A model generated the notes under the pieces. The model searched no databases, was not told where the DNA came from, and saw nothing but the letters and a program-made list of their open reading frames with translations. Shown one piece after another: positions 37,541 through 54,343 of a stretch of DNA of 64,000 bases (within the stretch, counting starts at the first letter, position 1; the number at the start of each line of letters is the position of its first letter). The DNA comes from Chlorobiaceae bacterium (GTDB lineage Bacteria > Bacteroidota > Ignavibacteria > UBA10030 > SZUA-254): positions 62,001-126,000 of the forward strand of contig PNNN01000051.1 of NCBI GenBank assembly GCA_013824245.1. Reading direction: 5' to 3'. Position numbers and translations under genes: made by a program.

Positions 37541-38335
37541 TCAATATATATCAATCTTACGCGTGCTGATAATATTTCCGCTGATTCCAAAGACTGAAAT
37601 TTCAACTGGAATTTGTGCATTAGTAGCGAGGACCGCTTGTTTCGTTATCTGCAGTAACCCTGAACAGCAAGGAACTTCCATTACTAAAATTTTAATGCTG
37701 CGAGGATTCGATTGTTCGATTATCTTTTTAATTTTTTCAAAATATAAATGAGTATCATCAAGTTTGGGACAACCCACCGCGATTGGAAATTTGCTAAGAT
37801 AATCATTGTGGAAATTTCCGTATGCAAATGGAACACAATCGGCGACTAATGCAATATCTGCATTTTTGAAATATTGCGCATTTGGTGAAACAAGGTGAAG
37901 TTGTATGGGCCATTGCCGAAGTTGAGACTCGATGGAGTTGCTCGTTTGTGCACTGATTGGTTTTTGAATTACCATAGTTCGGCTTGAGGGACAACCGACA
38001 GGATGATGTTGATGGTTTGTATGTATCGCTTGTAACTTATCGTCATCCATATTAAGATGCAGGATGTGAGCATCTAATTTCTCCGGTGAATGTTGCCTGA
38101 GGTGCTCGATAACTCCTGTTTCATCGTATGCATCCGTTTCTGTTTCAATTATTGATAAGGCGTCACGTGGACATTCGCCAATGCAGGCACCAAGTCCATC
38201 GCAGAAGCTTTCTTTCACGATTTTCGCTTTACCATCTATTATTCGTAAGGCGCCTTCCGGACAAGATGTTATACATACAGCACATCCATCGCAAAGTGAT
38301 TCATCGATTTGTATAATTTTTCGTTTTACCATCAT
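37541..38335 (-). CDS. Ferredoxin-domain protein with C-terminal cysteine-rich domain
   Basis: A 264-residue protein. Residues 1-60 are a 2[4Fe-4S] ferredoxin (CDGCAVCITSCPEGAL and CDGLGACIGECPRDAL). The rest is a conserved but uncharacterised domain with further cysteines in VGCPSSRTMVI, VADCVPFAYGNFH, AVGCPKLDD and EVPCCSGLLQI. Proteins of this layout are widespread in anaerobes as ferredoxins of unknown partner. Its place beside a membrane polyferredoxin and PFOR suggests electron transfer or handling of Fe-S clusters. It has no signal peptide and should be cytoplasmic. Confidence 0.85.
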   Translation of the reverse strand: MMVKRKIIQIDESLCDGCAVCITSCPEGALRIIDGKAKIVKESFCDGLGACIGECPRDALSIIETETDAYDETGVIEHLRQHSPEKLDAHILHLNMDDDKLQAIHTNHQHHPVGCPSSRTMVIQKPISAQTSNSIESQLRQWPIQLHLVSPNAQYFKNADIALVADCVPFAYGNFHNDYLSKFPIAVGCPKLDDTHLYFEKIKKIIEQSNPRSIKILVMEVPCCSGLLQITKQAVLATNAQIPVEISVFGISGNIISTRKIDIY

Positions 38336-38368
38336 AGTTCTTTCAATCTATTAAATATTTTTAAATTT

Positions 38369-39604
38369 TCAATCATTTGGTTGATACTCAGGTACTTGAC
38401 CTCGATTGTGTTGATAAAGCGGTGTATCGAGTTCCTTGAATCGTTTCTGATATTCAGCTTTCAAAATTTGATTATGCCAATTATTTGTGAGCATCGCAAG
38501 TCCGGTGATCGCCACAAAAACGCCGATAATTAATATGCCAAAGATCCAGTTTGGTACATGTGTTTTGGTAATCGGTGTGCGGATATCAAGCGTATTTTTC
38601 ACGGGGCAAACTTGCACGCAAGCGAGGCAGTTCATGCATTCATCGCTCCACACCTTATTAACTTTGTGTACTTTGATGTTCGAAGGGCATGCTTTGGTGC
38701 AAAGTTCGCAATCGACACACGAAGTTTTGTTTCGAGTTATCTTTGTAGGACTTAACCAACTTAACGCGCCAAGCAGTGCACCGTATGGGCAGAGGTAGCG
38801 GCACCAAAAATTCTTAATGAAAAGTGAAAACATCATCAATATAATAATTGTCCAGAGCGAGAATGATGAGATGTTGGCGAAAAATAGAAACATTTTAATG
38901 TCAGCTACTTTATTATATGGACTATAGATAAATTCCATAAGCGATTCGGTGTTCATTTGCCAGATCCAGTAAGCAAAGAAGAATAGAAGCAGATATTTAA
39001 TTGACCGGAGAGGATAATCGAGCCAGCGGTTCAAATTCAAATTTTTACCAAATATTTTCCTGCCCAGCATCCACAAGCTTTCGCTTAATGTGCCAACAGG
39101 ACACAACCAGCCACAAAAACTTTTTTTAAGGAGTATACTGATTGCGATAATAGCGATGAATATGAATAAACCGGACGGATGTACGTTATTGATTACTCCG
39201 GTTTGGAGCCAATATTTTAAACTGATTAATGCGCTGATTGGTAAAAATCCTTCAACACCCGGTGGTCTTTCATAAAATGCCAGTTGGTTTTGGCTTAATC
39301 CCCATTTCATGAACAAATAAAATTCGATCCCGATCCAAATACAGAGAAGTAAAAAAACTATTTGAACGGTTGATCGAAGAAATTGTGAGTCGGTTTTAAG
39401 TCTCAAAGCAAATCTTTTGTATATATTTTTTTCATCTCTGTAATTATATTTTTCTTTCCTCAGCTTAGGGTCTATTTTTTTTACACTAAAAATATTTGTA
39501 TCGGGATCAATGGATAATTCGTCTAATGAATTGGTGAGCATAAGACTGTCGGCAGGCGATTCACTTCTACCGTTGGTAATTGTTCGTTGTAATTCCATAG
39601 TCAA
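38369..39604 (-). CDS. Membrane polyferredoxin (NapH/CcoG-like)
   Basis: A 411-residue membrane protein. The N-terminal cytoplasmic stretch is followed by about five transmembrane helices, with paired-cysteine motifs CGWLCPVGTLSE and CRYLCPYGALLG at helix ends. Two [4Fe-4S] ligand sets follow, CVDCELCTKACPSNI and CMNCLACVQVCPVKNT, and a last membrane helix (about 355-378). This is the NapH/NosR/CcoG pattern. No nitrate reductase or cbb3 oxidase is nearby, so the role is likely quinol-to-ferredoxin (or reverse) electron transfer. A 62-base gap separates it from the Rrf2 gene upstream. Confidence 0.88.
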   Translation of the reverse strand: MTMELQRTITNGRSESPADSLMLTNSLDELSIDPDTNIFSVKKIDPKLRKEKYNYRDEKNIYKRFALRLKTDSQFLRSTVQIVFLLLCIWIGIEFYLFMKWGLSQNQLAFYERPPGVEGFLPISALISLKYWLQTGVINNVHPSGLFIFIAIIAISILLKKSFCGWLCPVGTLSESLWMLGRKIFGKNLNLNRWLDYPLRSIKYLLLFFFAYWIWQMNTESLMEFIYSPYNKVADIKMFLFFANISSFSLWTIIILMMFSLFIKNFWCRYLCPYGALLGALSWLSPTKITRNKTSCVDCELCTKACPSNIKVHKVNKVWSDECMNCLACVQVCPVKNTLDIRTPITKTHVPNWIFGILIIGVFVAITGLAMLTNNWHNQILKAEYQKRFKELDTPLYQHNRGQVPEYQPND

Positions 39605-39665
39605 TTTTTCTGGTGATATATTCAGAGTATTTAGTCTGATTATTAATTAAAAAAAGGTGTGGTTG

Positions 39666-40103
39666 TTAGATGGTCAAACTGTATTGTGGCTTTTTATTGT
39701 CGTCTGCCATTTCGAGTATATTTTTTGAAGCAAGCATATGATGAATTCTTTCGCGGATTATTTCCCACTGATCGTGGACAGCACAATGATCGTCATGGGT
39801 ACAATTTGGAAAGCCCAAAACGCAACTATTTATTAAGGAGAGACCATCTATAGCTTCAACTATCTGAAGTATAGTGATATCTTTTGCAGGTACTGCTAAA
39901 CCAAATCCACCCGCGGGACCCTTATGTGAAACCAAAAATCCTTTGCGTGTGAGGTCTTGGAGTATTTTCGCTACAAAATGGTAAGGAATATCAATACGTT
40001 TAGTTAACTCTCGTATTGAAGTCATCTCATTTTGTGGTTTCAATGCCAGATACAGCACGGCTTGTAGTGCATATTCGCATTGCCTGCTAAAAAGTATACT
40101 CAT
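39666..40103 (-). CDS. Rrf2-family transcriptional regulator with three-cysteine motif
   Basis: A 145-residue winged-helix regulator. The N-terminus FSRQCEYALQAVLYLAL and the recognition region IDIPYHFVAKILQDLTRKGFLVSHKGPAGGF (core YHFVAKILQDL and SHKGPAGGFGLA) are typical Rrf2. Cysteines at about residues 93-108 lie in NSCVLGFPNCTHDDHCAVH, a spacing suited to an Fe-S cluster as in IscR, NsrR and RsrR. It lies inside the leftward PFOR unit and is the obvious candidate regulator of it. An imperfect palindrome sits just upstream of its start. The signal (NO, oxygen or Fe-S status) is not known. Confidence 0.92.
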   Translation of the reverse strand: MSILFSRQCEYALQAVLYLALKPQNEMTSIRELTKRIDIPYHFVAKILQDLTRKGFLVSHKGPAGGFGLAVPAKDITILQIVEAIDGLSLINSCVLGFPNCTHDDHCAVHDQWEIIRERIHHMLASKNILEMADDNKKPQYSLTI

Positions 40104-40115
40104 TTTAAATTATCG

Positions 40116-40132
40116 GACTATTTAATAAAGTC
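40116..40132. promoter_or_regulatory. Imperfect palindrome upstream of the Rrf2 gene
   Basis: GACTATTTAATAAAGTC is an imperfect 17-bp palindrome (GACT and AGTC arms around an AT-rich centre) 13 bases before the Rrf2 start codon, in the only 31-base gap between it and the DHOD-like gene. GACT/AGTC arms occur in Rrf2-type operators, but the spacing differs from the IscR type 1 site, so autoregulation is a guess. Confidence 0.3.
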
Positions 40133-40134
40133 TA

Positions 40135-41136
40135 TTATTTGTAGCTGTGAAGAGATTTCATATAATTCGCACGTTCAAATGCTGCCGGATCAGCCACAGA
40201 TTTCTGGCTCATGCTTCCTTTAAGTTGTTGCACCGACACATATTCGTGTTCATCCATCCATCGTTCAACTTCGGTAAGGGTTTTTTTAATATGTTCTGGT
40301 CCATATTTAAGAAGGGCAGAGCACATCATTGTAACATCAGCTCCTGCCATTAACATCTTTAATACATCATCACCATTATGGATTCCGCTCGATGCGGCAA
40401 GGTTAGCTTTAATTTGTCCGTGCAATATTGCAATCCATCGCATCGGCAATCGCAATGCTTGCGGTGAACTTAAGATTACATTCGGTTCAATTTCAAGAGT
40501 CTCCAAATCAATATCGGGCTGATAGAAACGATTAAAGAGAACTAATCCATCAATACCGATATTGTCGAATTTCCGTGCCATATTTGCCATAGTTGTAAAA
40601 AAGGCACTTAGTTTCACTGCTACTGGTATCGTAACGCTTTTCTTCACTGTCTTGACTACTTCTAAATATTTATTCTCGAGTTCTGTTGATGAAACATCTG
40701 GATTGGTTGGGATGTAATAGATGTTCAGTTCCAGTGCGTCGGCGCCGGCATCCTGAATTTTTTTTGCATACTCGATCCACCCGCCAACCGAAACTCCGTT
40801 TAGACTGCCGATGATAGGAATCCCGAGCGTTTTTTTTGCTTTTTGTATATGTTCAAGATATTCTTCGGGTCCGGTATTATATTGCTGAATTTCAGGAAAA
40901 TAAGTCAGCGCCTCGGCATAACTTTCGGTGCCATGCGATAAATAATGTAGAAGTTCTGAACGCTCGTGCGCAATCTGTTCTTCGAAAAGTGAGTACATTA
41001 CGATTGCTGAGGCACCCGCATCTTCAAGTTGTTTCATGCTGTCGAGTGAGTAAGAAAGCGGCGATGCTGATGGAACTATCGGGTTTTTTAGTTTTTTCCC
41101 TAGGTATGTTGTGGTCAGATCCATTTTTATTTCCAT
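40135..41136 (-). CDS. Dihydroorotate-dehydrogenase-like oxidoreductase
   Basis: A 333-residue FMN TIM-barrel protein of the DHOD-like family. The start is [23 protein letters not shown], with its core [47 protein letters not shown], and the phosphate-binding end [29 protein letters not shown] (core [12 protein letters not shown]) follow. It is next to PFOR, as in many anaerobic bacteria, and no other pyrimidine gene is near. The substrate is therefore doubtful; a role with PFOR or ferredoxin is inferred from repeated linkage. Start codon ATG 41136 or the second Met four codons in. Confidence 0.88.
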
Positions 41137-41176
41137 TCCTTCAATCTATAATATTATATTATTATCTAACGTAAAT

Positions 41177-44100
41177 TTATTTTTGTGCGGAGTTGTCGTT
41201 GCCACGAGCAAGATGTTCATACATCTTCCAGCGTGTTTCTATGTCGCTTTGAGCGAGAGCGCCTAATTCCTTTGCTCTCTCAGGATAACTTTTTTCGAGC
41301 ATTTTAAATCGGGTTTCTAAATCTGTAAATTCTTTTAACTTCCGGCTTGGGGCTTTCGAATCGAGTTTGAAAGGATTTTTTCCCTCAAGTGTCAGCATTG
41401 GATTATATCTATAAAGAGGAAAATAACCAGTCTCCACAGCAAGTTTTTGATTTTGCATTCCGCGCGTCATATTTATACCGTGTGCTATGCAATGGCTATA
41501 TGCTATGATAATCGAAGGACCATTATATGCTTCTGCCTCAATGAATACGCGGAGTGTTTGTAGATCGTTCGAGCCCATTGCAACTGTTGCTACATATACA
41601 TTTCCATACGCCATCGCCAAGAGACCTAAATCTTTTTTTGCCGTCGGTTTTCCGTTCGCGGCAAATTTTGCTATCGCTGAACGGGATGTAGCTTTCGACA
41701 TTTGTCCGCCCGTGTTAGAATACACTTCGGTATCTAAGACAAGGATATTTACATTTTTGCCAGTAGCAATCACATGATCTAATCCGCCATATCCTATATC
41801 ATAAGCCCAGCCATCTCCACCGATAATCCAAACACTGCGTTTCACGAGATTATCACAAAGACTTAGCAAGCTCTTAGCTTCCGGGGAAGAGATGTTCTTT
41901 AATTTATCTTTAAGAATCTGTACTCTCTCGCGCTGTGTATAAATACCGGCTTCATCTTTTTGATCGGCAGTCAATAACTCGTTTGCAAGTGTTTCGCCGA
42001 TCTGAGATTTTAATTTCTCAACCAACTCTTTTGCCATCTCGGTATGTTTATCGACAGTGAGACGCATTCCAAGACCAAATTCTGCATTGTCTTCAAAAAG
42101 TGAATTCGACCATGTTGGTCCACGACCGTTAATATCTACACAATATGGGGTTGTTGGCAAATTACCGCCATAGATCGATGAACATCCGGTTGCGTTGGCA
42201 ATGATTGTTCTGTCGCCAAAAAGTTGTGTAACTAACTTAATATACGGCGTTTCTCCGCATCCGGCACATGCACCTGAATATTCAAACAAGGGACGTAAAA
42301 ATTGTGAACCTTTAATGGTATCTACCTTAACAGTTCGTCTGTCTATATCCGGTATATTCAAAAAGAAATCGTAGTTTAACCGCTCGGATTCACGGATGGG
42401 TGGCTGCGGTTTCATATTGATAGCTTTCACTTTTGTTTCCGATTTACTCTTTGCCGGACAAATGTCAACGCAAAGACCGCATTCTGTGCAATCTTCAGGT
42501 GCGATTTGTATTGTGTACTTCATTCCTTTGTATTCTGTACCTTTAAAATCGATCGACTTAAATGTGGCAGGAGCTTTATCGAGGAATTTCGAGTCATAAA
42601 CTTTTGCACGAATTGCGGCATGAGGACATACCATAACGCACTTATTGCACTGGATGCAAATCTCTGATTCCCAAACCGGAATTTCCAATGCGATGTTTCT
42701 CTTTTCCCATTGAGCTGTGGCTGTTGGGAACGTTCCATCTATCGGCATTGCGCTGACGGGGAGTTCATCACCGTTACCTGCGACTATTTTACCAAGAACA
42801 TTTTTAACATAATCGGGGGCTTGGAGCGACACTATCGGAGGCATTTCAATATTGCTTGTAACTTTATCAGGTATCTTCACTTCGAATAGGTTAGCAAGAG
42901 TTTGATCAACCGCCTCGAAATTTTGTGTTACAATATCAGCGCCCTTTTTACCGTAAGTTTTTTCTATTGAATGTTTGATTGCCGCTATCGCGTCATCTTT
43001 CGGTAATACACCCGATATGGCAAAGAAGCAGGTTTGCATGATTGTATTTATGCGTGTTCCCATGCCGGTTTGTCGTCCGACATTATACGCATCTATTACA
43101 TAAAGTTTGATCTTTTTATCAATGATCTGTTTTTGTATATGTCGCGGAAGTTTATCCCACACTTCATTCGGTCCGTATAAACTATTTAAAAGAAATGTTG
43201 CGCCTTTAATTGCGGTTTTAAGTACATCATATTTCTCAAGAAAGAACCATTGATGACATGCGATAAAACTTGCTTTATCGATCAAATATGTTGAGTGAAT
43301 CGGTCGTGGTCCAAAACGTAAATGCGATATTGTTGTTGAACCCGATTTTTTTGAATCGTACACGAAATATCCTTGCGCATAAAAATCTGTATCTTCACCG
43401 ATGATCTTGATCGAGTTTTTATTGGCGCTAACAGTTCCATCTGCCCCGAGACCAAAGAAAATTGCTCTCACCACATCGTCGGATTCGGTTGTGAATGATA
43501 GGTCGTATTCTAAACTTGTTTTTGTTACATCATCGTTGATGCCGACATTGAAATGATTTTTGGGTTGTGTTTTTTTCATTTCGTCAAAAACAGTTTTTAC
43601 CATAGCAGGTGTAAATTCTTTTGATGAAAGACCATATCTGCCGCCGATAATTTTAGGATATGAGAATGGCAAATTGTTATTTATGAATGCTTCACTGATT
43701 GTAGTTACAACATCCTGATACAGCGGTTCACCGGTTGCTCCGGGTTCTTTCGTTCGATCTAAAACCGCGATATTCTTAACCGATTTCGGTATTGCTTTTA
43801 AGAAATGTTCCATCGAGAATGGTCGAAATAGACGAACTTTCAACAGCCCGATCTTTTCCCCTTTTTGATTGAGATGTTCTACCGTTTCGTGTGCCGCTTC
43901 TGCGCCCGAACCCATCATTATAATAATTCGCTCCGCATCAGGCGATCCCACGTATTGAAATAATTCATATTTGCGCCCGACCATTTGTTCGAACTTTCGC
44001 ATCGTTTTCTCAATGATCGCAGGGCAAGCATCGTAAAATGGATTTACGGTTTCTCTTGCCTGAAAGTAGACATCAGGATTTTGGGCGGTGCCGCGAAGAA

Positions 44101-44746
44101 CAGGTCTATCGGGAGACATAGCTCTTGAACGATGAGCGCGGATTAATTCATCGTTGATCATTGTCCGCATATCGTCTTCTGTCAGTTGTTCTATCTTCAT
44201 TACTTCATGAGACGACCGAAAACCATCAAAAAAGTGTATGAACGGAATACGCGATTCCAAAGTTGCCGCCTGAGCGATTAATGCGAAGTCCATTATTTCC
44301 TGCAGCGAATTTGATGACAGCATTGCCCATCCGGTTGATCGCGCAGCCATCACATCGCTGTGTTCTCCAAAAATTGAAAGGGCATGGGTTGCAACAGTTC
44401 GCGCGGCGATATGAAACACTGTCGACGTTAACTCGCCCGCAATCTTGAACATATTCGGTATCATCAACAATAATCCCTGCGCCGATGTGAAAGTCGTTGA
44501 TAATGCTCCTGTTTGAAGTGCGCCGTGCACCGCACCAGCCGCTCCTCCTTCACTTTGCATCTCGATCACTTGCGGTATCGTTCCCCACAAATTTCTTTTC
44601 CCGAGAGCCGACCACTCATCGGACCATTCACCCATATTGGAAGAAGGTGTTATTGGATAGATAGCAATTACTTCATTTGTTTTGTGCGCGACATATGCGG
44701 CAGCTTCGTTACCGTCTATAGTGACCATTGTTCGATTTTGTTTCAT
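41177..44746 (-). CDS. nifJ: Pyruvate:ferredoxin (flavodoxin) oxidoreductase, single chain
   Basis: Oxidatively decarboxylates pyruvate to acetyl-CoA, reducing ferredoxin, or runs in reverse. The 1189-residue protein has all domains in order: the pyrimidine-binding alpha domain (VTIDGNEAAAYVAHKTNEV, IYPITPSSNMGEW), the CoA and gamma domains, and two [4Fe-4S] sets in the delta domain (CIQCNKCVMVCPHAAI, CTECGLCVDICPAKS). The TPP-binding beta domain has CAGCGETPY, ANATGCSSIYGG and GDGWAYDIGYGGLDHV. Length and motifs match the homodimeric NifJ/Por type. It is the first gene of the leftward unit, and a perfect 16-bp palindrome lies 53 bases upstream of its start. Confidence 0.97.
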   Translation of the reverse strand: MKQNRTMVTIDGNEAAAYVAHKTNEVIAIYPITPSSNMGEWSDEWSALGKRNLWGTIPQVIEMQSEGGAAGAVHGALQTGALSTTFTSAQGLLLMIPNMFKIAGELTSTVFHIAARTVATHALSIFGEHSDVMAARSTGWAMLSSNSLQEIMDFALIAQAATLESRIPFIHFFDGFRSSHEVMKIEQLTEDDMRTMINDELIRAHRSRAMSPDRPVLRGTAQNPDVYFQARETVNPFYDACPAIIEKTMRKFEQMVGRKYELFQYVGSPDAERIIIMMGSGAEAAHETVEHLNQKGEKIGLLKVRLFRPFSMEHFLKAIPKSVKNIAVLDRTKEPGATGEPLYQDVVTTISEAFINNNLPFSYPKIIGGRYGLSSKEFTPAMVKTVFDEMKKTQPKNHFNVGINDDVTKTSLEYDLSFTTESDDVVRAIFFGLGADGTVSANKNSIKIIGEDTDFYAQGYFVYDSKKSGSTTISHLRFGPRPIHSTYLIDKASFIACHQWFFLEKYDVLKTAIKGATFLLNSLYGPNEVWDKLPRHIQKQIIDKKIKLYVIDAYNVGRQTGMGTRINTIMQTCFFAISGVLPKDDAIAAIKHSIEKTYGKKGADIVTQNFEAVDQTLANLFEVKIPDKVTSNIEMPPIVSLQAPDYVKNVLGKIVAGNGDELPVSAMPIDGTFPTATAQWEKRNIALEIPVWESEICIQCNKCVMVCPHAAIRAKVYDSKFLDKAPATFKSIDFKGTEYKGMKYTIQIAPEDCTECGLCVDICPAKSKSETKVKAINMKPQPPIRESERLNYDFFLNIPDIDRRTVKVDTIKGSQFLRPLFEYSGACAGCGETPYIKLVTQLFGDRTIIANATGCSSIYGGNLPTTPYCVDINGRGPTWSNSLFEDNAEFGLGMRLTVDKHTEMAKELVEKLKSQIGETLANELLTADQKDEAGIYTQRERVQILKDKLKNISSPEAKSLLSLCDNLVKRSVWIIGGDGWAYDIGYGGLDHVIATGKNVNILVLDTEVYSNTGGQMSKATSRSAIAKFAANGKPTAKKDLGLLAMAYGNVYVATVAMGSNDLQTLRVFIEAEAYNGPSIIIAYSHCIAHGINMTRGMQNQKLAVETGYFPLYRYNPMLTLEGKNPFKLDSKAPSRKLKEFTDLETRFKMLEKSYPERAKELGALAQSDIETRWKMYEHLARGNDNSAQK

Positions 44747-45324: not shown

Positions 45325-46488
45325 TTATCTTACAAAATATTCTGCAATCACCTTCTGCCAACTCACATCGGAAAGTTCTTCAAGTTGCCCGATATAAATC
45401 TGACCCTCTTCTATATATTCACCTTCTCGTTTTTCGGATTTCAATATATCCTTTATTAATATTTTGCAATTTTCAATATCATTCTGGAATAAAGCAACAG
45501 CAGATTTACCGATGTACATTCCTTTAATTTCGTCATCTATTTTATCCGTATCAAGAGCGCAAATCCAATTTCTTTCATAAGGGGTCATCTCTAGTGCCAC
45601 AAGATTTCTCAGCAAAACTGTATTTACCTGTGATACTTTTCCGGTAATTGGAGAATTAAAAGTAACGCTTCTGCCTCCTTGCTTCACCGTAAATAGCGGC
45701 TGACCAGCTTTTATGTTCATACCAAGATTTGGAAGTTCAATCGAATCTATTTTGCCAATTAATTTTTTAGCAAAGTCATCTATGCCAATTTTTGTAATTC
45801 CTTCTTGATTGATGCTAAACCATGTATGATTCTTAGCTATGAATACACCGCCGGGAATTGAAAACTCTCCTTTGATAAAATCATGCGAGGCTGGAAGATG
45901 AGTGATATGCACATTAGGTTTGAGTTGCTTCTGGATTTTATCCTGTCTTTTAATTAATATTTTCTTCACGAAGGCAAGAAGCTCGTCTTCGGTAAATGGT
46001 TTTTGGACATAATCCATTACACCATATTTCATCGTTTCAACAGCAGTTTCCACAGAAGCGTATCCTGTAATAATAATTACATCTATGTCGGGGCGTAAAT
46101 GTTTTACCGACTTTGTCACTTCAACTCCATCCATGAGTGGCATTTTGAGATCGGTAAAAACAAAATCGTAATGACGTTTTTGTATCAAACCGAGAGCTTC
46201 CTGACCTGTTTCTACAGTATCTATAGAGTAACCGTCAAGCACAAGAATTTTTCTGAAGCTGCCAAGAATAACTTCCTCATCATCAACACAAAGAATTTTA
46301 GCTTTTGGATTTCCGACTTCAGCACGTTTTAATGTTTTTGCCTCGCTGGTAAAATCTAGCTTAAGACTTTCCTGTAAAACAATTTCACGCTCTTTCTTTA
46401 ACTTATTTTCGGTTAAGCGCTTGCTAATCATACGGATCAAGATATCAGCAATGATGAATATAATTACTGCAAGTATTAATAATGCCAT
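45325..46488 (-). CDS. Membrane-anchored response regulator with degenerate GcvH-like domain
   Basis: A 387-residue protein with an unusual build. An N-terminal membrane helix (about 3-20) and charged linker are followed by a receiver domain at about 64-180 (LCVDDEEV, phosphoacceptor Asp113 in FVFTDLKMP, IIITGYAS, VQKPFTEDEL). A domain at about 212-316 aligns with glycine-cleavage H protein (HTWFSINQEGITKIGIDDFA, ELPNLGMNIKAGQPLFTV, SPITGKVSQVN). The lipoyl-lysine position is glycine (about residue 272), so it cannot be a lipoyl carrier by the usual residue. No DNA-binding domain is seen. It is the last gene of the kinase-cytochrome unit. Output is unknown. Confidence 0.85.
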   Translation of the reverse strand: MALLILAVIIFIIADILIRMISKRLTENKLKKEREIVLQESLKLDFTSEAKTLKRAEVGNPKAKILCVDDEEVILGSFRKILVLDGYSIDTVETGQEALGLIQKRHYDFVFTDLKMPLMDGVEVTKSVKHLRPDIDVIIITGYASVETAVETMKYGVMDYVQKPFTEDELLAFVKKILIKRQDKIQKQLKPNVHITHLPASHDFIKGEFSIPGGVFIAKNHTWFSINQEGITKIGIDDFAKKLIGKIDSIELPNLGMNIKAGQPLFTVKQGGRSVTFNSPITGKVSQVNTVLLRNLVALEMTPYERNWICALDTDKIDDEIKGMYIGKSAVALFQNDIENCKILIKDILKSEKREGEYIEEGQIYIGQLEELSDVSWQKVIAEYFVR

Positions 46489-46526
46489 GGCGTTTCTCCT
46501 AAAAAGAATAATTTGTTAAACTTTTA

Positions 46527-47348
46527 TTAAGTACGAATCTGCATTCTATCTGAACTGCAAGGAACTAAATTTTTAATTTCATAACCAAGGTCATGAGGTA
46601 TAACGCGATATACCCATCCTTCAAAGTAAGGATCTTTTTCGATCAGGTTAGAAACTAATTTAAGATTTTTATTCACATCAATTATTCTGCCTGAAACGGG
46701 AGAATGAATTTTATGTATTCTCTCATCCCTTGATTTGATTGTAAGACAACTAATGCCTTGTGCGACCTCATTTTCAAGATCGAGAAATTCGATTTCTGCA
46801 ACTGAATCAATTGTTGCAAGAAAAAAATCGCAAACACCTATTAAAACCGATCCATCCCTTTCTTCAAACAGCCAGCTTGAATGACCGAGACGATAATATT
46901 TTGCTGGGCAGTCAACATAATATAATTCATTTTTTTGATCTTTTATTAACGATTGTTTTTGCTTCTTGTTAATTTGCTGATATTTGTTCGCGCGATAAAT
47001 TGAACTCAGCAATTCGTCCACGGTAAATGGTTTGGGAATAAAATCTATTGCACCCCGGTAAAGTGAATTAACAGCGTTTTCAACAGTTGAATAGCCTGTC
47101 ATCATTATTAAAGCGCTGTCGATATTTCTCTTTTGAAGCTCATTTAAAATCTGGAAACCATCACCATCGGGCATCATAATATCGCAGATGATAATAGAGT
47201 AATATTTTTTTGAGATTTTATCAATTGCAGCCGTTACATTTAAAGCAGTATCAATTGAATAATTTTCGAGTGAGCAGATTTTAACCACTCCATCTATTAT
47301 TACACTCTCATCATCAATGACCAATATGTTCGATTGTTTATTCATCAA
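46527..47348 (-). CDS. Response regulator with degenerate GcvH-like domain
   Basis: A 273-residue soluble regulator. The receiver domain spans about 6-120 (LVIDDESV, Asp56 in IIICDIMMP, MMTGYST, IPKPFTVDEL). The H-protein-like domain spans about 152-254 (YRLGHSSWLFEERDGSVLIG, HSPVSGRIIDVN, EKDPYFEGWVYRVIP). The last motif closely matches the GcvH C-terminal DPYGEGWLFKI pattern. The lipoyl lysine is replaced by Glu (about residue 209). It is paralogous to the next regulator but lacks its membrane helix. It lies 6 bases after the sensor kinase gene, so the two form a unit. No DNA-binding or enzymatic output domain is present. Confidence 0.87.
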   Translation of the reverse strand: MMNKQSNILVIDDESVIIDGVVKICSLENYSIDTALNVTAAIDKISKKYYSIIICDIMMPDGDGFQILNELQKRNIDSALIMMTGYSTVENAVNSLYRGAIDFIPKPFTVDELLSSIYRANKYQQINKKQKQSLIKDQKNELYYVDCPAKYYRLGHSSWLFEERDGSVLIGVCDFFLATIDSVAEIEFLDLENEVAQGISCLTIKSRDERIHKIHSPVSGRIIDVNKNLKLVSNLIEKDPYFEGWVYRVIPHDLGYEIKNLVPCSSDRMQIRT

Positions 47349-47354
47349 TCAAAC

Positions 47355-49226
47355 TTACTTCTGCTGTGTAAGTGGAAGCCGGATAATAAAAGTAGTACCT
47401 TTTTCTTCTTCGCTTTCAACGCTTATAGTTCCATTATGATTATCGATTATTCCCCAGATTACAGCCAAACCAAGTCCTGTACCTTTTTGTCCTTTAGTTG
47501 AGAAAAATGGCTCAAAGATTTTTGGAAGATCATCTTTACTAATTCCGCAACCCGTATCGCTGATTCTTATTTCTATATACTCTTTTAATCCCGAAGAATC
47601 AACAAAATCCCATTTCTCCCAGTTACTGTTTTCAGAAGAACATACTTCGTAAACACCCTGCCCGCTTATCTCGAATGCAAGAACAGGCGCGCCGCATTGG
47701 GGGCAGGATTTATCGGGCTGAACAAGCGATGTATCGCAATCCGGGCAAACAAATTTGGTCTCTTTATCTATTTTAACTCCGGGATAATAATGGTTACGAT
47801 GTTTTCCGTAAACAGGATCAAGATGAATTATTCCCCCATTGCCGGCAGAAACAACTTTTACTTTCAATGCCGGTAGCCCGTCAATCTTAAAATCGTTATC
47901 AATTAGACTGTGACGTTTTGGACATGATGCTTTCTTTATCTGAGCAACTCCAAATGGGGAAAGAGAAATTTGTTTTTTAACTATTGTTATTGTTCCACCG
48001 TCTTTGCCAATTGCATCTGACGCATTTACAAAAAGGTTGATGAATACTTGTTGAATTTGATTTGAATCGACAGTTATTGGGGGAAGATTGTTTTCCGACT
48101 TTCTGATAATTTTTATTTTTTTTACCGACAACTGTTTTTCAACTACAATGATTGCTTTGTCAATAATTTCATTCAAATTTGCATTGCTTTTTCTGGGAAC
48201 GGACTGCCGAGCAAAATCCAATAAGCTTTTTACAATTTCCCGGCTTCGTATAGTTTCTCTGACGATAATATTCAGATCTTCCTGAAGTTCGGGGTTATCC
48301 TTTGTTCTCTTTAAAAGAAAGCTGCTGTAAGTCAGGACTCCGGTCAGGGGGTTATTTATTTCGTGAGCAACGCCTGCGGCAAGGCGTCCCAGCGAAGCCA
48401 TTTTGTCCGATTGAAAAAGCTGCATGCGTGCTTCTGCGAGCTTCTTTGTCATATTGTTAAATGAAGAACCAAGTTTTCCTATTTCATCATCGCTGAGATC
48501 TTTAATGGCATAATTCAAATTCCCCTGACTAACCTGTAATGTCGCATTCAACAAATCATTAACGGGATTAGATACCCAGCGTCTTACGAAGAAAGCGATC
48601 AATAATCCAACTGCGATTATTGCAACAATTGCAAAGATCACAATTTCCAATTCTCGTGTAATAATCGCGTTATCAACCTCTGCAAGGGAGATTGAAACAT
48701 CCAGAACACCAAGAACTTTTTGATTTTTCGGATGAGCATGACAGTTCGCCTGCCAACACGATGTTTCGTTGTAAATCGGGGTAATTATTCCAAGAACACG
48801 GTTGGAGTCTGGATGAATCTTGAATATTCGGGTTCGCTCGGTGATAGAGATCTGCTCTAAAGGTTGATCTTCCGAGTGGCATGCATAACAACTCTCAGCA
48901 CGCTTATCAACCATTTTATTTATGTTTTTAGAATCGGATGAATAAATAATCTCACCGATTTTATTTATGATTCTCACATCTCTTATTTGCGGCTGCGTTC
49001 CAATTGAATTAATTGTCTGTTGAATTCTATCTCTTTGATTTAACATCATATCAAACCGGGTGCTGGATATAACCGTTTCACCAAGCTGATTTGCATGTCG
49101 TTCAACTTCAGAAATCAAGCTGCTGCTCTGCGATGTAATATTGAAGTATGCAAATACGCCAATTATTACAAGCGATGTTAATGCAACAGCGAATATTAAC
49201 CGAAATCCAATCTTCTTAAAAAGCAT
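47355..49226 (-). CDS. Haem-motif sensor histidine kinase with zinc-ribbon insertion
   Basis: A 623-residue membrane kinase. Helices at about 8-28 and 195-214 enclose an external sensor region of about 165 residues that contains two haem c attachment motifs, CYACH (113-117) and CWQANCH (157-163, CX4CH). HAMP and HisKA follow (His288 in AAGVAHEINNPLTG). The ATPase domain has an N box (VFINLFVNASDAIG) and G1/G2 boxes (ISDTGCGISKDD, GQKGTGLGLAVI). Between them about 130 residues are inserted, carrying CPDC (494-497), CPQC (508-511) and a CPKRH (435-439). This suggests sensing by haem redox state or ligand, with a metal site tuning catalysis. Inference beyond the motifs. Confidence 0.9.
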   Translation of the reverse strand: MLFKKIGFRLIFAVALTSLVIIGVFAYFNITSQSSSLISEVERHANQLGETVISSTRFDMMLNQRDRIQQTINSIGTQPQIRDVRIINKIGEIIYSSDSKNINKMVDKRAESCYACHSEDQPLEQISITERTRIFKIHPDSNRVLGIITPIYNETSCWQANCHAHPKNQKVLGVLDVSISLAEVDNAIITRELEIVIFAIVAIIAVGLLIAFFVRRWVSNPVNDLLNATLQVSQGNLNYAIKDLSDDEIGKLGSSFNNMTKKLAEARMQLFQSDKMASLGRLAAGVAHEINNPLTGVLTYSSFLLKRTKDNPELQEDLNIIVRETIRSREIVKSLLDFARQSVPRKSNANLNEIIDKAIIVVEKQLSVKKIKIIRKSENNLPPITVDSNQIQQVFINLFVNASDAIGKDGGTITIVKKQISLSPFGVAQIKKASCPKRHSLIDNDFKIDGLPALKVKVVSAGNGGIIHLDPVYGKHRNHYYPGVKIDKETKFVCPDCDTSLVQPDKSCPQCGAPVLAFEISGQGVYEVCSSENSNWEKWDFVDSSGLKEYIEIRISDTGCGISKDDLPKIFEPFFSTKGQKGTGLGLAVIWGIIDNHNGTISVESEEEKGTTFIIRLPLTQQK

Positions 49227-49257: not shown

Positions 49258-50397
49258 TTATTTACCAACTAATATCCCTGGTTTTTGCTTTGGATATACA
49301 AAGTTTTCGTGGCAACCATTGCAGCCGGGTTTAACAGAATAATCATTACCGGCATGGCAATCTTCGCAGCCAAGTTCTGAATGTGGCTCGGTAAGCCGCA
49401 AGCCGGTTACATAATGCTTAAAGGTTTCTTTTTTCCAGTTCTTATGGCAACTTACACATTGATTATTAAGTTTTTGATATGGCCGCTTTGATCCATGACA
49501 ATTAATACAAGAAAGATTAATGTGATGTTTTTTCAGCGCCCACCCAGTTCTCTTCTCATGATTAAATTGTTCAACTTGTTTATCAAGATGACATTTTGCA
49601 CAGTCATCTTTTGCGTGACAACTAAAGCATTTTTTATGGTGGTCTTCTAATGATTTTTTCTCCTTTACTAATTTTAATTTATCACTCGATGGATTATTCA
49701 CATCATGGCATTTCGTGCAGCTTTCCTGTGCATGGCAGTCAATACAATTTAATTTGAAATTTTTTACGTGGTCGTCATGATAGTAAGTTACAAACTTTCC
49801 TTTTTCATAATTTGTTTCGTAGACAATTTTAGTTGGTTCAGTAACGGGTGGATGAACTTTACCTGCTAATTGTTTTTTCGACTCCTCTTTATGTGATCCT
49901 TTTACTTCGCTTATTGGAATGTGGCAAGATTTGCAACCTGTTTCATGACTCCACTCTCGATGGCACTCCATACATTGTCTGTGATAAGCGCCTTTCAGAT
50001 CAAGAATGGCGATATTCTCTCGTTGTCTTGAGGGTTCATGACATTTGCTACATTTTAAAATTTGTTCTAAAGTATTGTGATGATGGCAATTCCCACAGCC
50101 ACCAAGCATTACGGACATCTGTGCATGGATCCTGTGTGAAAAATAAACAGGACCAAACCTCTCATTCGCTTGATCAATAATAACAAGTTCATCGGTTTGT
50201 TCGGCTTTGAGATAAACCGTAATCATTTTTTCACGAGGACAAGCTACCCAGCAAGGTTCATCTTTTGTTGGGAGACCACAAGTATGACATGATACACAAT
50301 TAATGTGCAGCTTCGCGTGATCTTTACCGGGGCTCTGCTGTGCATAAGTTCCAACTGTAAAAAATAATACAAATATAACGGCAAAAATCTTTTTCAT
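49258..50397 (-). CDS. Exported 13-heme c-type cytochrome
   Basis: A 379-residue periplasmic cytochrome with a signal peptide (about 1-19, cleavage after TYAQ). Thirteen CXXCH motifs are countable: CVSCH, CGNCH, CSKCH, CMECH, CKSCH, CIDCH, CTKCH, CFSCH, CAKCH, CINCH, CVSCH, CEDCH and CNGCH. An extra cysteine cluster near residues 37-54 (CHTCGLPTKDEPCWVAC) has no haem motif. The gene overlaps the HybB-like gene by four bases, so it is very probably a subunit or direct partner of that quinone module, as cytochromes are in Hmc-type complexes. Confidence 0.93.
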   Translation of the reverse strand: MKKIFAVIFVLFFTVGTYAQQSPGKDHAKLHINCVSCHTCGLPTKDEPCWVACPREKMITVYLKAEQTDELVIIDQANERFGPVYFSHRIHAQMSVMLGGCGNCHHHNTLEQILKCSKCHEPSRQRENIAILDLKGAYHRQCMECHREWSHETGCKSCHIPISEVKGSHKEESKKQLAGKVHPPVTEPTKIVYETNYEKGKFVTYYHDDHVKNFKLNCIDCHAQESCTKCHDVNNPSSDKLKLVKEKKSLEDHHKKCFSCHAKDDCAKCHLDKQVEQFNHEKRTGWALKKHHINLSCINCHGSKRPYQKLNNQCVSCHKNWKKETFKHYVTGLRLTEPHSELGCEDCHAGNDYSVKPGCNGCHENFVYPKQKPGILVGK

Positions 50398-51641
50398 TTT
50401 TCCACTCCTCTGATTGTATATTTTTTGGGTTGGGCAGTTTGTTGACCGGGTAAGCTTATGACAGGAAAATTCATGACAATAAATCTGTACGCGAGAACCA
50501 ACAGTGCCACAAATCCCACAGTTACCGAAATTTCACCGAATGATGGAAAATACGATTCGGTTGAATAAGGTGGCGTATATGCAACAACAAAATTATTTAT
50601 TCGGTTCAACAATACTCCGAAAACAACAAGTGCCGATGCTGTAAAAAGAAGCGGAGGTGATTTCAAAACTTTTGGTGATAAGAACATTCTTAATGGAATA
50701 ATTACGCCCAAAACAACTTCGATTGAAAACATTACGCTCGCAGTTGTAAATTCATTTAAATAAACAAACGTTTCTCTGATGAACATATCACCGATCTTAA
50801 ACGCAAGATATATTCCCAGCAATGGTGCGATCATCGAACCTAATCTTGAAAGAATGTGCATTTCAGGTTTTAACTTTAGTGAACGCGAAGCTATCAGAGA
50901 TTCAAAAATCACCATCGGGAAACCAACAGAAACCGCAGATAGTAAAAATAACAACGGGAGAACAGGGGTTTGCCAGAGCGGATGCATCTTTGGTCCGGCA
51001 ATAACCATTAATGTGCCGAGTGAAGACTGATGAAGTGTTGAGAGAACAACTCCTGCAATTATAAATATGAACATGGTTTTTGAAAGTCCGCGATCAAGTA
51101 ATCTCAATATTTTATCGGCGGGTTTGTTTAAGGCAGTGAGTAATCCGGGTAGATTAACTTTTCCGATAAATCGTTCTGTAACAATCGGAAGAAATTCAAT
51201 GTAGAGAACCGTCATATAAATCATAACGCAGATGCCGACTTCAAACAAAGCCGAATTTCCATTCCACATAATTAATGGATGCCAGATGAAGTACCATCTT
51301 CCTATATCAACAAAAACTCCTACTGCAACAAAAGTATAGCCGAGCATAGCCGTTAACAATGCGGGGCGTACAATGGCATGATATTCTTCTTTGTGCATAA
51401 CATGGCCGAAAGCTGCGGTTGTAAATCCACCAGCGGCAAGCGCAACACCGGCAGCAACATCAACTCCAATCCATAATCCCCATGGGTATTGATCGTTAAG
51501 ATTCGTTACCGCACCCAAGCCAAAGAAAAATCTTCCCATCAGGAAAACTAAACCATTGAGGGCAATTACGATGAGTACATAAACACCGGGTGTAAAAAAT
51601 TTATGTTTGATTGGAACGGGATTAACTAATTCGTGGCTCAT
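50394..51641 (-). CDS. HybB/NrfD-family quinone-interacting membrane subunit
   Basis: A 415-residue integral membrane protein with about ten helices. The start KFFTPGVYVLIVIALNGLVFLMGRF, of which PGVYVLIVIALNG is a hydrophobic helix, is followed by the family segment DQYPWGLWIGVDVAAGVALAAGGF (core YPWGLWIGVDVAAG). GRWYFIWHPLIMWNGNSALFEVGICVMIY comes next (core IWHPLIMWNGNSALFE), as in HybB. It should pass electrons between menaquinol and the adjoining Fe-S protein. No hydrogenase or reductase catalytic subunit is encoded next to it. It overlaps both neighbours by four bases. Confidence 0.92.
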   Translation of the reverse strand: MSHELVNPVPIKHKFFTPGVYVLIVIALNGLVFLMGRFFFGLGAVTNLNDQYPWGLWIGVDVAAGVALAAGGFTTAAFGHVMHKEEYHAIVRPALLTAMLGYTFVAVGVFVDIGRWYFIWHPLIMWNGNSALFEVGICVMIYMTVLYIEFLPIVTERFIGKVNLPGLLTALNKPADKILRLLDRGLSKTMFIFIIAGVVLSTLHQSSLGTLMVIAGPKMHPLWQTPVLPLLFLLSAVSVGFPMVIFESLIASRSLKLKPEMHILSRLGSMIAPLLGIYLAFKIGDMFIRETFVYLNEFTTASVMFSIEVVLGVIIPLRMFLSPKVLKSPPLLFTASALVVFGVLLNRINNFVVAYTPPYSTESYFPSFGEISVTVGFVALLVLAYRFIVMNFPVISLPGQQTAQPKKYTIRGVEK

Positions 51642-52561
51642 ATTTTTTCTTCCTCTTCTAATTCTTTACGACGTTTTGTAATCCACATGATTCCGCCCAG
51701 CAGTGCATATAAAGAAACAGGCGGAACGAAGTAAGCGAAAATTCCATGCTGGATAGATTCGGAAACACCGGGGGCAGGATTTTTTCCCAAATCGGGAAAA
51801 TCAAGTTCCTTAAATTCTTTAGAAGCAAGGTACATCCATGAAGTGCCTCCAACCTCATATTCACCCAAAATATGATTAACATAACGATTAGGATTTCGTT
51901 TAATACGATTACGTGCAATTTTAATTAGTTCATGTCTGGGTCCACATGTAAGTGCTTCAACCGGACAAATGTTAACACAGGCGGGAAGTTTTCCATCTTT
52001 TGTTCTATTAAAACAAAAATCGCATTTCATGATTAATGGATTAATTGCTTTGTCGTACTCGAATGCCGGAATCTGGAACGGGCACGCAGCCATACAATAA
52101 CGGCAGCCGATGCACATATCTGTATCCCAGATAACCGATCCGTTTTCTTGTTTAGAAAAAGCGCCAACAATGCAGGCAGAGACACAAGCCGGATGATCGC
52201 AATGCATACACTGTACTTTCACATCAACGGGAAGATTTGAATTTTTACCGTGAGGATATTCATTAACAACTGTAAGTGCTGTTTGATCAGGTCTTCTTTT
52301 AGTTTCTAGAATTTTTCTGTCTTCATAGGAATCTAAATTACCGGCAGGTAAATTATGAGCATCTTTGCAAGCCCATTCACAATTTCGACAGCCGACACAG
52401 GCAGTTGTATCAACTAAAACTCCCATCCTGTCTTCTGATAAAATATTTTTAGGTCCTGCTTTTGCTGTTGATGCCGAAAGTCCTGTAGCCACAGACCCTA
52501 TTGCTACAGATTTTTTTAGAAAATCGCGACGGCTTTTGCCAGACATTTTCATACCTTTCAA
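51638..52561 (-). CDS. HybA-like four-cluster ferredoxin subunit with Tat signal
   Basis: A 307-residue exported Fe-S protein. The Tat signal is SRRDFLKKSVAIGS near residue 9. Ligand sets for four [4Fe-4S] clusters follow: CVGCRNCEWACK, CMHCDHPACVSAC, CIGCRYCMAACPF, and CDFCFNR with CVNICPVEAL. A membrane helix near the C-terminus (about 275-297) anchors it. This is the HybA/DsrO/HmcB type. With the HybB-like protein and the 13-heme cytochrome it forms a predicted quinone-to-cytochrome (or reverse) module on the periplasmic face. It heads the six-gene leftward unit. Confidence 0.93.
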   Translation of the reverse strand: MKGMKMSGKSRRDFLKKSVAIGSVATGLSASTAKAGPKNILSEDRMGVLVDTTACVGCRNCEWACKDAHNLPAGNLDSYEDRKILETKRRPDQTALTVVNEYPHGKNSNLPVDVKVQCMHCDHPACVSACIVGAFSKQENGSVIWDTDMCIGCRYCMAACPFQIPAFEYDKAINPLIMKCDFCFNRTKDGKLPACVNICPVEALTCGPRHELIKIARNRIKRNPNRYVNHILGEYEVGGTSWMYLASKEFKELDFPDLGKNPAPGVSESIQHGIFAYFVPPVSLYALLGGIMWITKRRKELEEEEKI

Positions 52562-52821: not shown

Positions 52822-54237
52822 TTATTTCATCAATAACATTTTTCTGGAGAATGTCATATTGTTGGTCTCGAGCTTGTAGAAATATAAACCGCTCGGTAAA
52901 TTAGCCGGTGAAAATGTTGCAGTATGAATTCCGGCGGGGAGCGATTGATTTTTTAATATTTTTCCTACTTCATGCCCGATCACATCATACACAGTTAATG
53001 TAACAAGTGATGCTTTTGGCAAATGAAATTCGATCGACGTCGATGGATTAAATGGATTCGGATAATTTTGGAGAAGTTCAAATTTCTCAGGGACTTGATT
53101 GCCCTGTTTAGATCGAACATCAGTTGTTAAAGTTGTATCGAATCCTAACTTTGACATCTGGTATTTTGTTAACGGTGTTGCGAAAAACATCTGATGACCA
53201 TCCGGTGAGCTCTTACCAATCGGCGACCAATTTTTTGATGGAACAACTGGATCTGTCGGAGCGCCGTTGTACGTTAGATAGTCCATCTTAAGAGAACGTT
53301 GATAATCTGCCGGAATAGGAACTATTCCTGTTTTGGCTGTGATTGTGCTGTCGAGTGCATTCCACTTTGCAAAGTAGATTTCACCTGTAGCATTATACTC
53401 TGCGATTGCCGGAATGTTACCGCCAAAGTTTTGATGACAGTCGACGCATTTGCGTCCAGTTGAATCGATTGTATGCGATGTAAAAGGTCCGAATGCTGCC
53501 CAGGCATTTCCCTGAAATGTGAGGGACTGGAATGTTGCCGGATAAACTTTGTTATCTTTCGTTCGATTAACGAGCATAACAAAATTATGAAGAGTTTGTT
53601 TTGCGCGTTTCTTTCCAACAATCTGACTTTCGAGATGGCAGCTATAGCATGATGCGACTGTTTTTGCATGGCAGGCAGTGCAATGTATCTTTCCTCCGTG
53701 TGGATCATAACTAGAATGATCCGGAAGAGTTGCTGGTGAATTATGACAATTATCACAATCGACAGTTATCGCTCCCGGTTCAAGCATTGAATTATAAACT
53801 GTCGAAGTTCCGTGCATATCGGCTGATGTGTGGCAATCCCAACATTTAAAACCGGCTGTGCGATGTACATCAGTATATCCAAGCGTAACTGCTTCAGTTT
53901 TTTGGCGACTGTGGCAACCGAGACATTGGTCAACTTTAATAGAATCTGGATTGAATGCAGAGTTTGTTGGATGACAATCGACGCATCCGGGAGTATAGTC
54001 GACTGGGTAAGCAACTCCATCTGCGTCTAAAGGTCCGTGGCACTTCGTGCAACCCATACCTCCGCTGTCGATAGCGACGTTGGTCAACTGTTCAAATCCT
54101 CCATTTGCTTTACCATACCAGAAGTTTTTGCCTGCTCGAGTTTTATGTAAGCTCGTATTGAAATCAGCTTGTGAAAAAATCGTACCATACACGAAAAAGC
54201 AGAGTATTGCTATCAATAATGGTCTAAAATTTTTCAT
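52822..54237 (-). CDS. Octaheme c-type cytochrome with type IX secretion sorting tail
   Basis: A protein of about 471 residues combining eight CXXCH motifs (CTKCH, CVDCH, CLGCH, CWDCH, CDNCH, CTACH, CYSCH, CVDCH) with a C-terminal T9SS type-A sorting domain of about 85 residues (LLQNYPNPFNPSTSIEF, VYDVIGHEVGKIL, LPSGLYFYKLET). The ATG at 54237 is chosen because GGAGCT lies nine bases before it and a signal peptide (FRPLLIAILCFFVYG) follows at once. An upstream frame to 54303 is not needed. It is predicted to be exported across the outer membrane or placed on the cell surface, an unusual fate for a multiheme cytochrome. Confidence 0.92.
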   Translation of the reverse strand: MKNFRPLLIAILCFFVYGTIFSQADFNTSLHKTRAGKNFWYGKANGGFEQLTNVAIDSGGMGCTKCHGPLDADGVAYPVDYTPGCVDCHPTNSAFNPDSIKVDQCLGCHSRQKTEAVTLGYTDVHRTAGFKCWDCHTSADMHGTSTVYNSMLEPGAITVDCDNCHNSPATLPDHSSYDPHGGKIHCTACHAKTVASCYSCHLESQIVGKKRAKQTLHNFVMLVNRTKDNKVYPATFQSLTFQGNAWAAFGPFTSHTIDSTGRKCVDCHQNFGGNIPAIAEYNATGEIYFAKWNALDSTITAKTGIVPIPADYQRSLKMDYLTYNGAPTDPVVPSKNWSPIGKSSPDGHQMFFATPLTKYQMSKLGFDTTLTTDVRSKQGNQVPEKFELLQNYPNPFNPSTSIEFHLPKASLVTLTVYDVIGHEVGKILKNQSLPAGIHTATFSPANLPSGLYFYKLETNNMTFSRKMLLMK

Positions 54238-54343
54238 ATGAATAGCTCCTATATTAATTGATACATGCGGTGATTTAATATTAGTATTGATTTTATATTT
54301 CATTGATCATTGTTATAAGCACAAATTGATGCAAAATAATCTT

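What the first reader, a model, noticed from the sequence alone, without database searches (positions are those of the whole stretch)
45325..47348. GcvH-like domains that have lost the lipoyl lysine
Both regulator C-termini keep H-protein landmarks (HTW or HSSW start, SP-x-(S/T)GK/R-(V/I), and in one DPYFEGW) but the lysine that carries lipoate is Gly (about residue 272) in one and Glu (about residue 209) in the other. The fold may have been recruited for binding in signalling. H-protein-like domains as response-regulator outputs are not a standard output class I know.
Basis: partly seen in the sequence, partly recalled or inferred. Interest (0 to 1): 0.82.

Follow-up and report, generated by a model that had tools for sequence, protein, structure and literature searches.

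The report
Lysine-less GcvH domains on response regulators
Two signalling proteins next to a respiratory electron-transfer operon end in a domain borrowed from the glycine-cleavage H-protein that has lost its lipoate-carrying lysine; the arrangement is conserved in hundreds of bacteria and suggests that a kinase switch acts directly on a membrane electron-transfer complex rather than on genes.

Summary
Both proteins are receiver (REC) plus GcvH-fold domains (Pfam E 4e-17 and 4e-15; Foldseek top hits are H-proteins, TM about 0.9). The lipoyl site is Gly272 in the long protein and Asp208/Glu209 in the short one; Lys269 lies off the hairpin tip. None of 233 related domains carries the canonical lipoyl motif (Lys in the column: 1/87 short, 15/93 long, 0/53 stand-alone; true GcvH 27/27). 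The genome keeps a normal GcvH elsewhere, and the lysine-less domain is under purifying selection.

The real finding is wider. Both genes close a conserved six-gene operon (HmcB-like, HmcC-like, 13-haem cytochrome, di-haem sensor kinase, REC-GcvH, TM-REC-GcvH; 47 of 54 eligible loci, several phyla). Related clusters carry both GcvH types without REC, still beside HmcB/HmcC; 92 of 103 lysine-less GcvH domains in the order lie within 6 kb of HmcB/C. In three genomes without the kinase, the REC lost its phosphorylation site but TM-GcvH stayed.

Best explanation: the GcvH fold is a cytoplasmic docking part of an HmcBC-type quinol-oxidase complex under phosphorylation control. Direct binding is inferred, not shown. 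No literature report was found.

The parts
45325..46488 (-). TM-REC-GcvH protein ('RRlong', 387 aa)
46423..46488 (-). N-terminal transmembrane helix (residues 1-22), positive residues after it, so REC and GcvH are predicted cytoplasmic
   Evidence: topology by positive-inside rule (inference)
45949..46302 (-). receiver domain, residues 63-180; Asp69, Asp70, Asp113, Thr141, Lys163 invariant
45514..45867 (-). GcvH-fold domain, residues 208-325
45673..45675 (-). Gly272 codon, at the lipoyl-lysine position (hairpin tip)
46527..47348 (-). REC-GcvH protein ('RRshort', 273 aa from TTG)
46989..47327 (-). receiver domain, residues 8-120; Asp12, Asp13, Asp56, Lys106 invariant, Thr84 at least 90%
46575..46898 (-). 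GcvH-fold domain, residues 151-258, with the EKDPYFEGW signature
46722..46727 (-). Asp208/Glu209 codons, at the lipoyl-lysine position
47355..49226 (-). sensor histidine kinase: periplasmic CxxCH and CX4CH motifs, HAMP, HisKA, HATPase with an inserted double CxxC ribbon
49258..50397 (-). periplasmic multihaem cytochrome c (13 CxxCH in orthologues)
50394..51641 (-). HmcC/HybB/NrfD-like integral membrane quinol oxidase
51638..52561 (-). HmcB/HybA-like 4Fe-4S protein with Tat signal and hydrophobic C-tail

Best explanation
Both C-terminal domains are true GcvH-fold domains that no longer carry lipoate. Most likely they work as cytoplasmic protein-docking modules of a membrane quinol-oxidase/cytochrome complex of the HmcB-HmcC type. 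In this operon each has a working receiver domain attached. The di-haem sensor kinase reads the periplasmic redox state or electron flow and phosphorylates the two receivers. That changes how the membrane-anchored (long) and soluble (short) GcvH domains sit on the cytoplasmic face of HmcC, and so tunes assembly or electron flow without a transcription step. Shown here: fold, loss of the lipoyl motif, intact receiver residues, operon conservation, receiver-free counterparts next to HmcBC, and decay of the receiver where the kinase is missing. Inferred: physical binding to HmcC, the sensed signal, and the direction of control.
For: Fold. Lipoyl motif lost in 233/233 domains against Lys in 27/27 true GcvH. 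Purifying selection, dN/dS 0.05-0.17 in GcvH domains. REC catalytic residues conserved. Six-gene operon in order in 47/54 eligible loci of Ignavibacteriota, Elusimicrobiota, Calditrichota and others. Receiver-free TM-GcvH and soluble GcvH flank HmcB-HmcC in other clusters, whose kinase instead pairs with an NtrC-type regulator; 92/103 lysine-less GcvH domains lie within 6 kb of HmcB/C, and several of the exceptions are at contig ends. The long-type GcvH domain groups with the TM-GcvH proteins encoded beside HmcB (94/87; 98/84 with L079). G160, G244, G250: operon without kinase or short regulator, sensor not found in the genome, D113 changed to G/G/S and D70 to K, while TM, GcvH, HmcC and MHC (and HmcB in the two operons seen whole) remain. 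The TM anchor and the lack of any DNA-binding domain argue against a transcriptional output.
Against: No direct evidence of binding; operon proximity can also reflect regulation in cis. In the type of this window HmcB carries a Tat signal, so only HmcC offers a cytoplasmic surface, whereas in receiver-free clusters HmcB lacks a signal; the docking surface may differ between the types. One family of the class has kinase plus REC-GcvH pairs with no HmcBC nearby, so binding HmcBC cannot be the only function of REC-GcvH proteins. The kinase-loss case rests on three genomes of two genera, one of them only 83% complete.
Confidence: 0.5

Rival explanations
1. The GcvH domains are general protein-binding outputs that contact another regulator or enzyme (for example a sigma-54 activator, a protease or a metabolic enzyme), and the HmcBC genes are merely the regulated operon.
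For: REC-GcvH proteins exist beside PAS-type kinases without HmcBC. In some loci a second kinase and an NtrC-type regulator sit next to this operon.
Against: Receiver-free GcvH proteins stay with HmcBC; the receiver decays while TM-GcvH remains with HmcC and the cytochrome. The long protein is anchored in the same membrane as HmcC.
Confidence: 0.25
2. The domains still bind lipoyl-handling enzymes (LplA, LipA, dihydrolipoyl dehydrogenase) or glycine-cleavage partners as decoys, and report lipoate or glycine metabolism to the regulators.
For: Foldseek hits include H-proteins from LplA and LIAS complexes, so the overall surface shape is kept.
Against: No glycine-cleavage or lipoate genes beside the operons; the recognition motif around the lysine is lost in all relatives.
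Confidence: 0.07
3. The domain is still lipoylated, or carries another adduct, on a different Lys of the hairpin (for example Lys269 or a neighbouring Lys).
For: Lys269 is K or R in 54 of 62 relatives; 15 of 93 long-type domains have Lys in the lipoyl column.
Against: Arg, Thr, Ser or Asn replace Lys269 in relatives and it is not at the hairpin tip; Lys in the lipoyl column is a minority state without the Glu and Ala neighbours; the short type has Asp/Glu there.
Confidence: 0.04
4. The short regulator is a phosphate sink and the GcvH parts are inert remnants.
For: Two regulators share one kinase, an arrangement known for sinks (background knowledge).
Against: Purifying selection on GcvH in both; signatures such as EKDPYFEGW and IPGGVF conserved across phyla.
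Confidence: 0.08

Closest known systems
GcvH, H-protein of the glycine cleavage system (Pfam PF01597, TIGR00527)
   Same: Fold, HxW start, G-D/DPY-GW landmarks, hairpin with SPxSG after it; top sequence and structure matches.
   Different: No lipoyl motif, no glycine-cleavage neighbours, fused to a receiver and in the long form to a TM helix; NCBIfam GcvH subfamily score about half its cut-off.
Other GcvH-related families without a settled role: TIGR03077 (not_gcvH), NF045810 (GcvH_rel_desulf), and LbpA of the sHdr pathway
   Same: GcvH paralogues used outside glycine cleavage; receiver-free relatives of this family match the first two weakly.
   Different: All far below the cut-offs. LbpA keeps a strictly conserved lipoyl Lys and sits with hdr-like genes (PMC6067878); here the Lys is lost and the neighbours are HmcBC.
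Response regulators with FixJ/NtrC-type receivers
   Same: Complete receiver active site and adjacent cognate kinase.
   Different: Output is a GcvH-fold domain, not a DNA-binding, enzymatic or RNA-binding domain.
Hmc complex of Desulfovibrio and HybA/HybB-like quinol-oxidase modules (PMC10924467)
   Same: HmcB-like Tat iron-sulfur protein with C-tail, HmcC-like quinol oxidase, multihaem cytochrome; regulators next to hmc are also known (rrf1/rrf2).
   Different: 13-haem instead of 16-haem cytochrome; no HmcD, HmcE or HmcF; HmcB and HmcC below their NCBIfam cut-offs; GcvH-bearing regulators added.

Membership tests
GcvH (glycine cleavage H-protein) | GcvH fold | tested here: met
   Pfam, PDB profile search, AlphaFold plus Foldseek
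GcvH (glycine cleavage H-protein) | Lipoyl lysine in E-[SA]-V-K-A-x-S motif | tested here: not met
   Gly272 and Asp208/Glu209; 0/233 relatives have the motif
GcvH (glycine cleavage H-protein) | Neighbouring gcvT/gcvP genes | tested here: not met
   neighbours are HmcBC, cytochrome, kinase
Response regulator | Receiver with acidic pair, phospho-Asp, Thr/Ser, Lys | tested here: met
   invariant or nearly so in 62 and 57 orthologues
Response regulator | Cognate histidine kinase | tested here: met
   kinase gene adjacent in 64/64 eligible loci
Response regulator | Phosphotransfer from the kinase | not testable with these tools
   needs biochemistry
Hmc complex | HmcA-F set with 16-haem HmcA | tested here: not met
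   only B- and C-like subunits plus a 13-haem cytochrome; scores below the equivalog cut-offs
LbpA of the sHdr pathway | Conserved lipoyl Lys and hdr-like neighbours | tested here: not met

The most novel reading that the evidence does not exclude
Lysine-less GcvH proteins are an unrecognised cytoplasmic subunit family of HmcBC/NrfD-type quinol-oxidase complexes, and in the type seen here two of them carry receivers, so a haem-based sensor kinase controls a respiratory or extracellular-electron-transfer complex directly by phosphorylating its own subunits, bypassing transcription.
Probability: 0.4. Interest if true: 0.8.

Novelty: new variant of a known kind. Interest (0 to 1): 0.62.

Why it matters
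It would add a response-regulator output class built from a metabolic cofactor-carrier fold. It also gives a concrete, testable case of two-component control acting on a membrane electron-transfer complex itself, in bacteria known for cytochrome-based extracellular electron transfer. And it assigns a likely role to many proteins that automatic annotation may name 'glycine cleavage system protein H'.

Tried and rejected
Lipoylation at Lys269: rejected, off the hairpin tip and replaceable by Arg/Thr/Ser/Asn. DNA-binding output: no such domain, long form membrane-anchored. Pseudogene or relaxed domain: dN/dS 0.05-0.17. Literature: ten full-text searches found no report of REC-GcvH or of GcvH proteins with HmcBC; the library holds open-licence papers only, and the last of them matched its terms poorly. 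The direction of REC insertion versus loss could not be fixed, because the domain tree (113 columns) is not safely rooted. The genome was not available as a file, and a Foldseek library of cellular predictions was not on hand.

Full report
OBSERVATION. The window carries two adjacent minus-strand genes, 46527-47348 (273 aa) and 45325-46488 (387 aa). Each has a receiver domain followed by a GCV_H domain above Pfam's cut-off. The only other GCV_H match in the genome is an ordinary GcvH in a 141-aa open frame on another contig, with the lipoyl motif EAVKAVSD. AlphaFold models (mean pLDDT 82 for the long and 92 for the short protein) return solved H-proteins as best Foldseek matches at TM 0.90, normalised to the target, and a profile of the long-type GcvH domain finds H-proteins first in the PDB (E 9e-18). 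The fold assignment is therefore firm.

LIPOYL SITE. In the long protein the match to GcvH around the site is gap-free and puts Gly272 on the lysine; in the model it lies in the turn between strands 264-270 and 273-278. In the short protein the hairpin is one residue longer, so the site is Asp208 or Glu209. In 27 true GcvH sequences of the class the column is Lys 27 times. It is Lys in 15 of 93 long-type, 1 of 87 short-type and 0 of 53 other domains (mostly receiver-free), and none of the 233 has the canonical E-[SA]-x-K-[AVSM] motif. Close relatives are included in these counts, so they are not independent events. GcvH-domain dN/dS between near relatives is 0.05-0.17: the domain is maintained.

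OPERON. A scan of GTDB species genomes found at least 456 relatives; the 80 kept are mostly Ignavibacteriota but include MAGs labelled Elusimicrobia, Calditrichia, Gemmatimonadetes and Xanthomonadales. The order HmcB-like, HmcC-like, multihaem cytochrome, kinase, short regulator, long regulator is complete in 47 of 54 loci with enough upstream sequence. In many Melioribacteraceae it runs on into large multihaem cytochromes. HmcB and HmcC homologues form quinol-oxidase modules with periplasmic cytochromes (PMC10924467). The kinase has a periplasmic CxxCH plus CX4CH in 64 of 64 orthologues, so a di-haem sensor is likely. Receiver active sites are conserved in both regulators.

RECEIVER-FREE COUNTERPARTS. 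Other genomes of the class carry a second type of cluster: one or two TM-anchored GcvH-like proteins, HmcB-like, HmcC-like, a soluble GcvH-like protein, a related di-haem kinase, an NtrC-type regulator and an archaemetzincin. In the order sampled, 92 of 103 lysine-less GcvH domains lie within 6 kb of an HmcB or HmcC homologue; several of the exceptions are at contig ends. In a domain tree the long-type GcvH groups with the TM-GcvH proteins encoded beside HmcB (94/87; 98/84 including L079). The long regulator therefore looks like such a TM-GcvH protein with a receiver placed between TM and GcvH; whether the receiver was gained or lost elsewhere is open.

NATURAL EXPERIMENT. In G160, G244 and G250 the operon has no kinase and no short regulator, and the genomes hold no real match to the kinase's sensor region: only the HAMP part is hit, apart from one weak 21%-identity match. 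There the long protein's receiver has D113 changed to G, G or S and D70 to K, while the TM helix and GcvH fold remain beside HmcC and the cytochrome. This is what one expects if GcvH serves the complex and the receiver serves the kinase. It is three genomes of two genera, so it is suggestive only.

MECHANISM. The favoured explanation is a docking module of the HmcBC complex under phosphorylation control, with the sensor reading periplasmic redox state or electron flow. The binding partner, the signal and the direction of control are inferences. The main difficulty is a third context in one family of the class: PAS-type kinases paired with REC-GcvH and no HmcBC nearby, so the domain may bind other partners too.

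NOVELTY. No publication describing REC-GcvH regulators or GcvH proteins with HmcBC was found in ten searches of the open library. Known GcvH paralogues such as LbpA keep the lysine (PMC6067878); TIGR03077 and NF045810 match far below their cut-offs. I rate it a new variant of a known kind.

Noticed in passing
window 47355-49226 (-): The kinase has a double CxxC (zinc-ribbon or rubredoxin-like) insertion between HisKA and the end of the HATPase domain, found in 61 of 64 orthologues and in none of 8 related type II kinases; possibly a second, cytoplasmic redox or metal input.
   Followed up: partly
L085 14252-14791, also L082, L095, L097: Type II clusters end with an archaemetzincin (peptidase M54) after the NtrC-type regulator; its link to the electron-transfer complex is unknown.
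   Followed up: partly
L093 6494-9108, L196, L197, L198, L199: Stand-alone pairs of PAS-type kinase and REC-GcvH without HmcBC in family f20; the kinase read in full (L093) starts with a Rossmann-like stretch.
   Followed up: partly
L095 1273-7868: Molybdopterin-binding-like protein, pentahaem cytochrome, iron-sulfur and NrfD-like proteins flanked by two GcvH-like proteins, resembling a complex-iron-sulfur or alternative-complex-III type cluster with GcvH subunits.
   Followed up: no
window 37541-44746 (-): PFOR, dihydroorotate-dehydrogenase-like protein, Rrf2 regulator and a YccM-like ferredoxin follow the operon and are also together in L100.
   Followed up: no
window 52822-54303 (-): Multihaem cytochrome with a type IX secretion sorting tail upstream of HmcB, a likely cell-surface cytochrome.
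   Followed up: no
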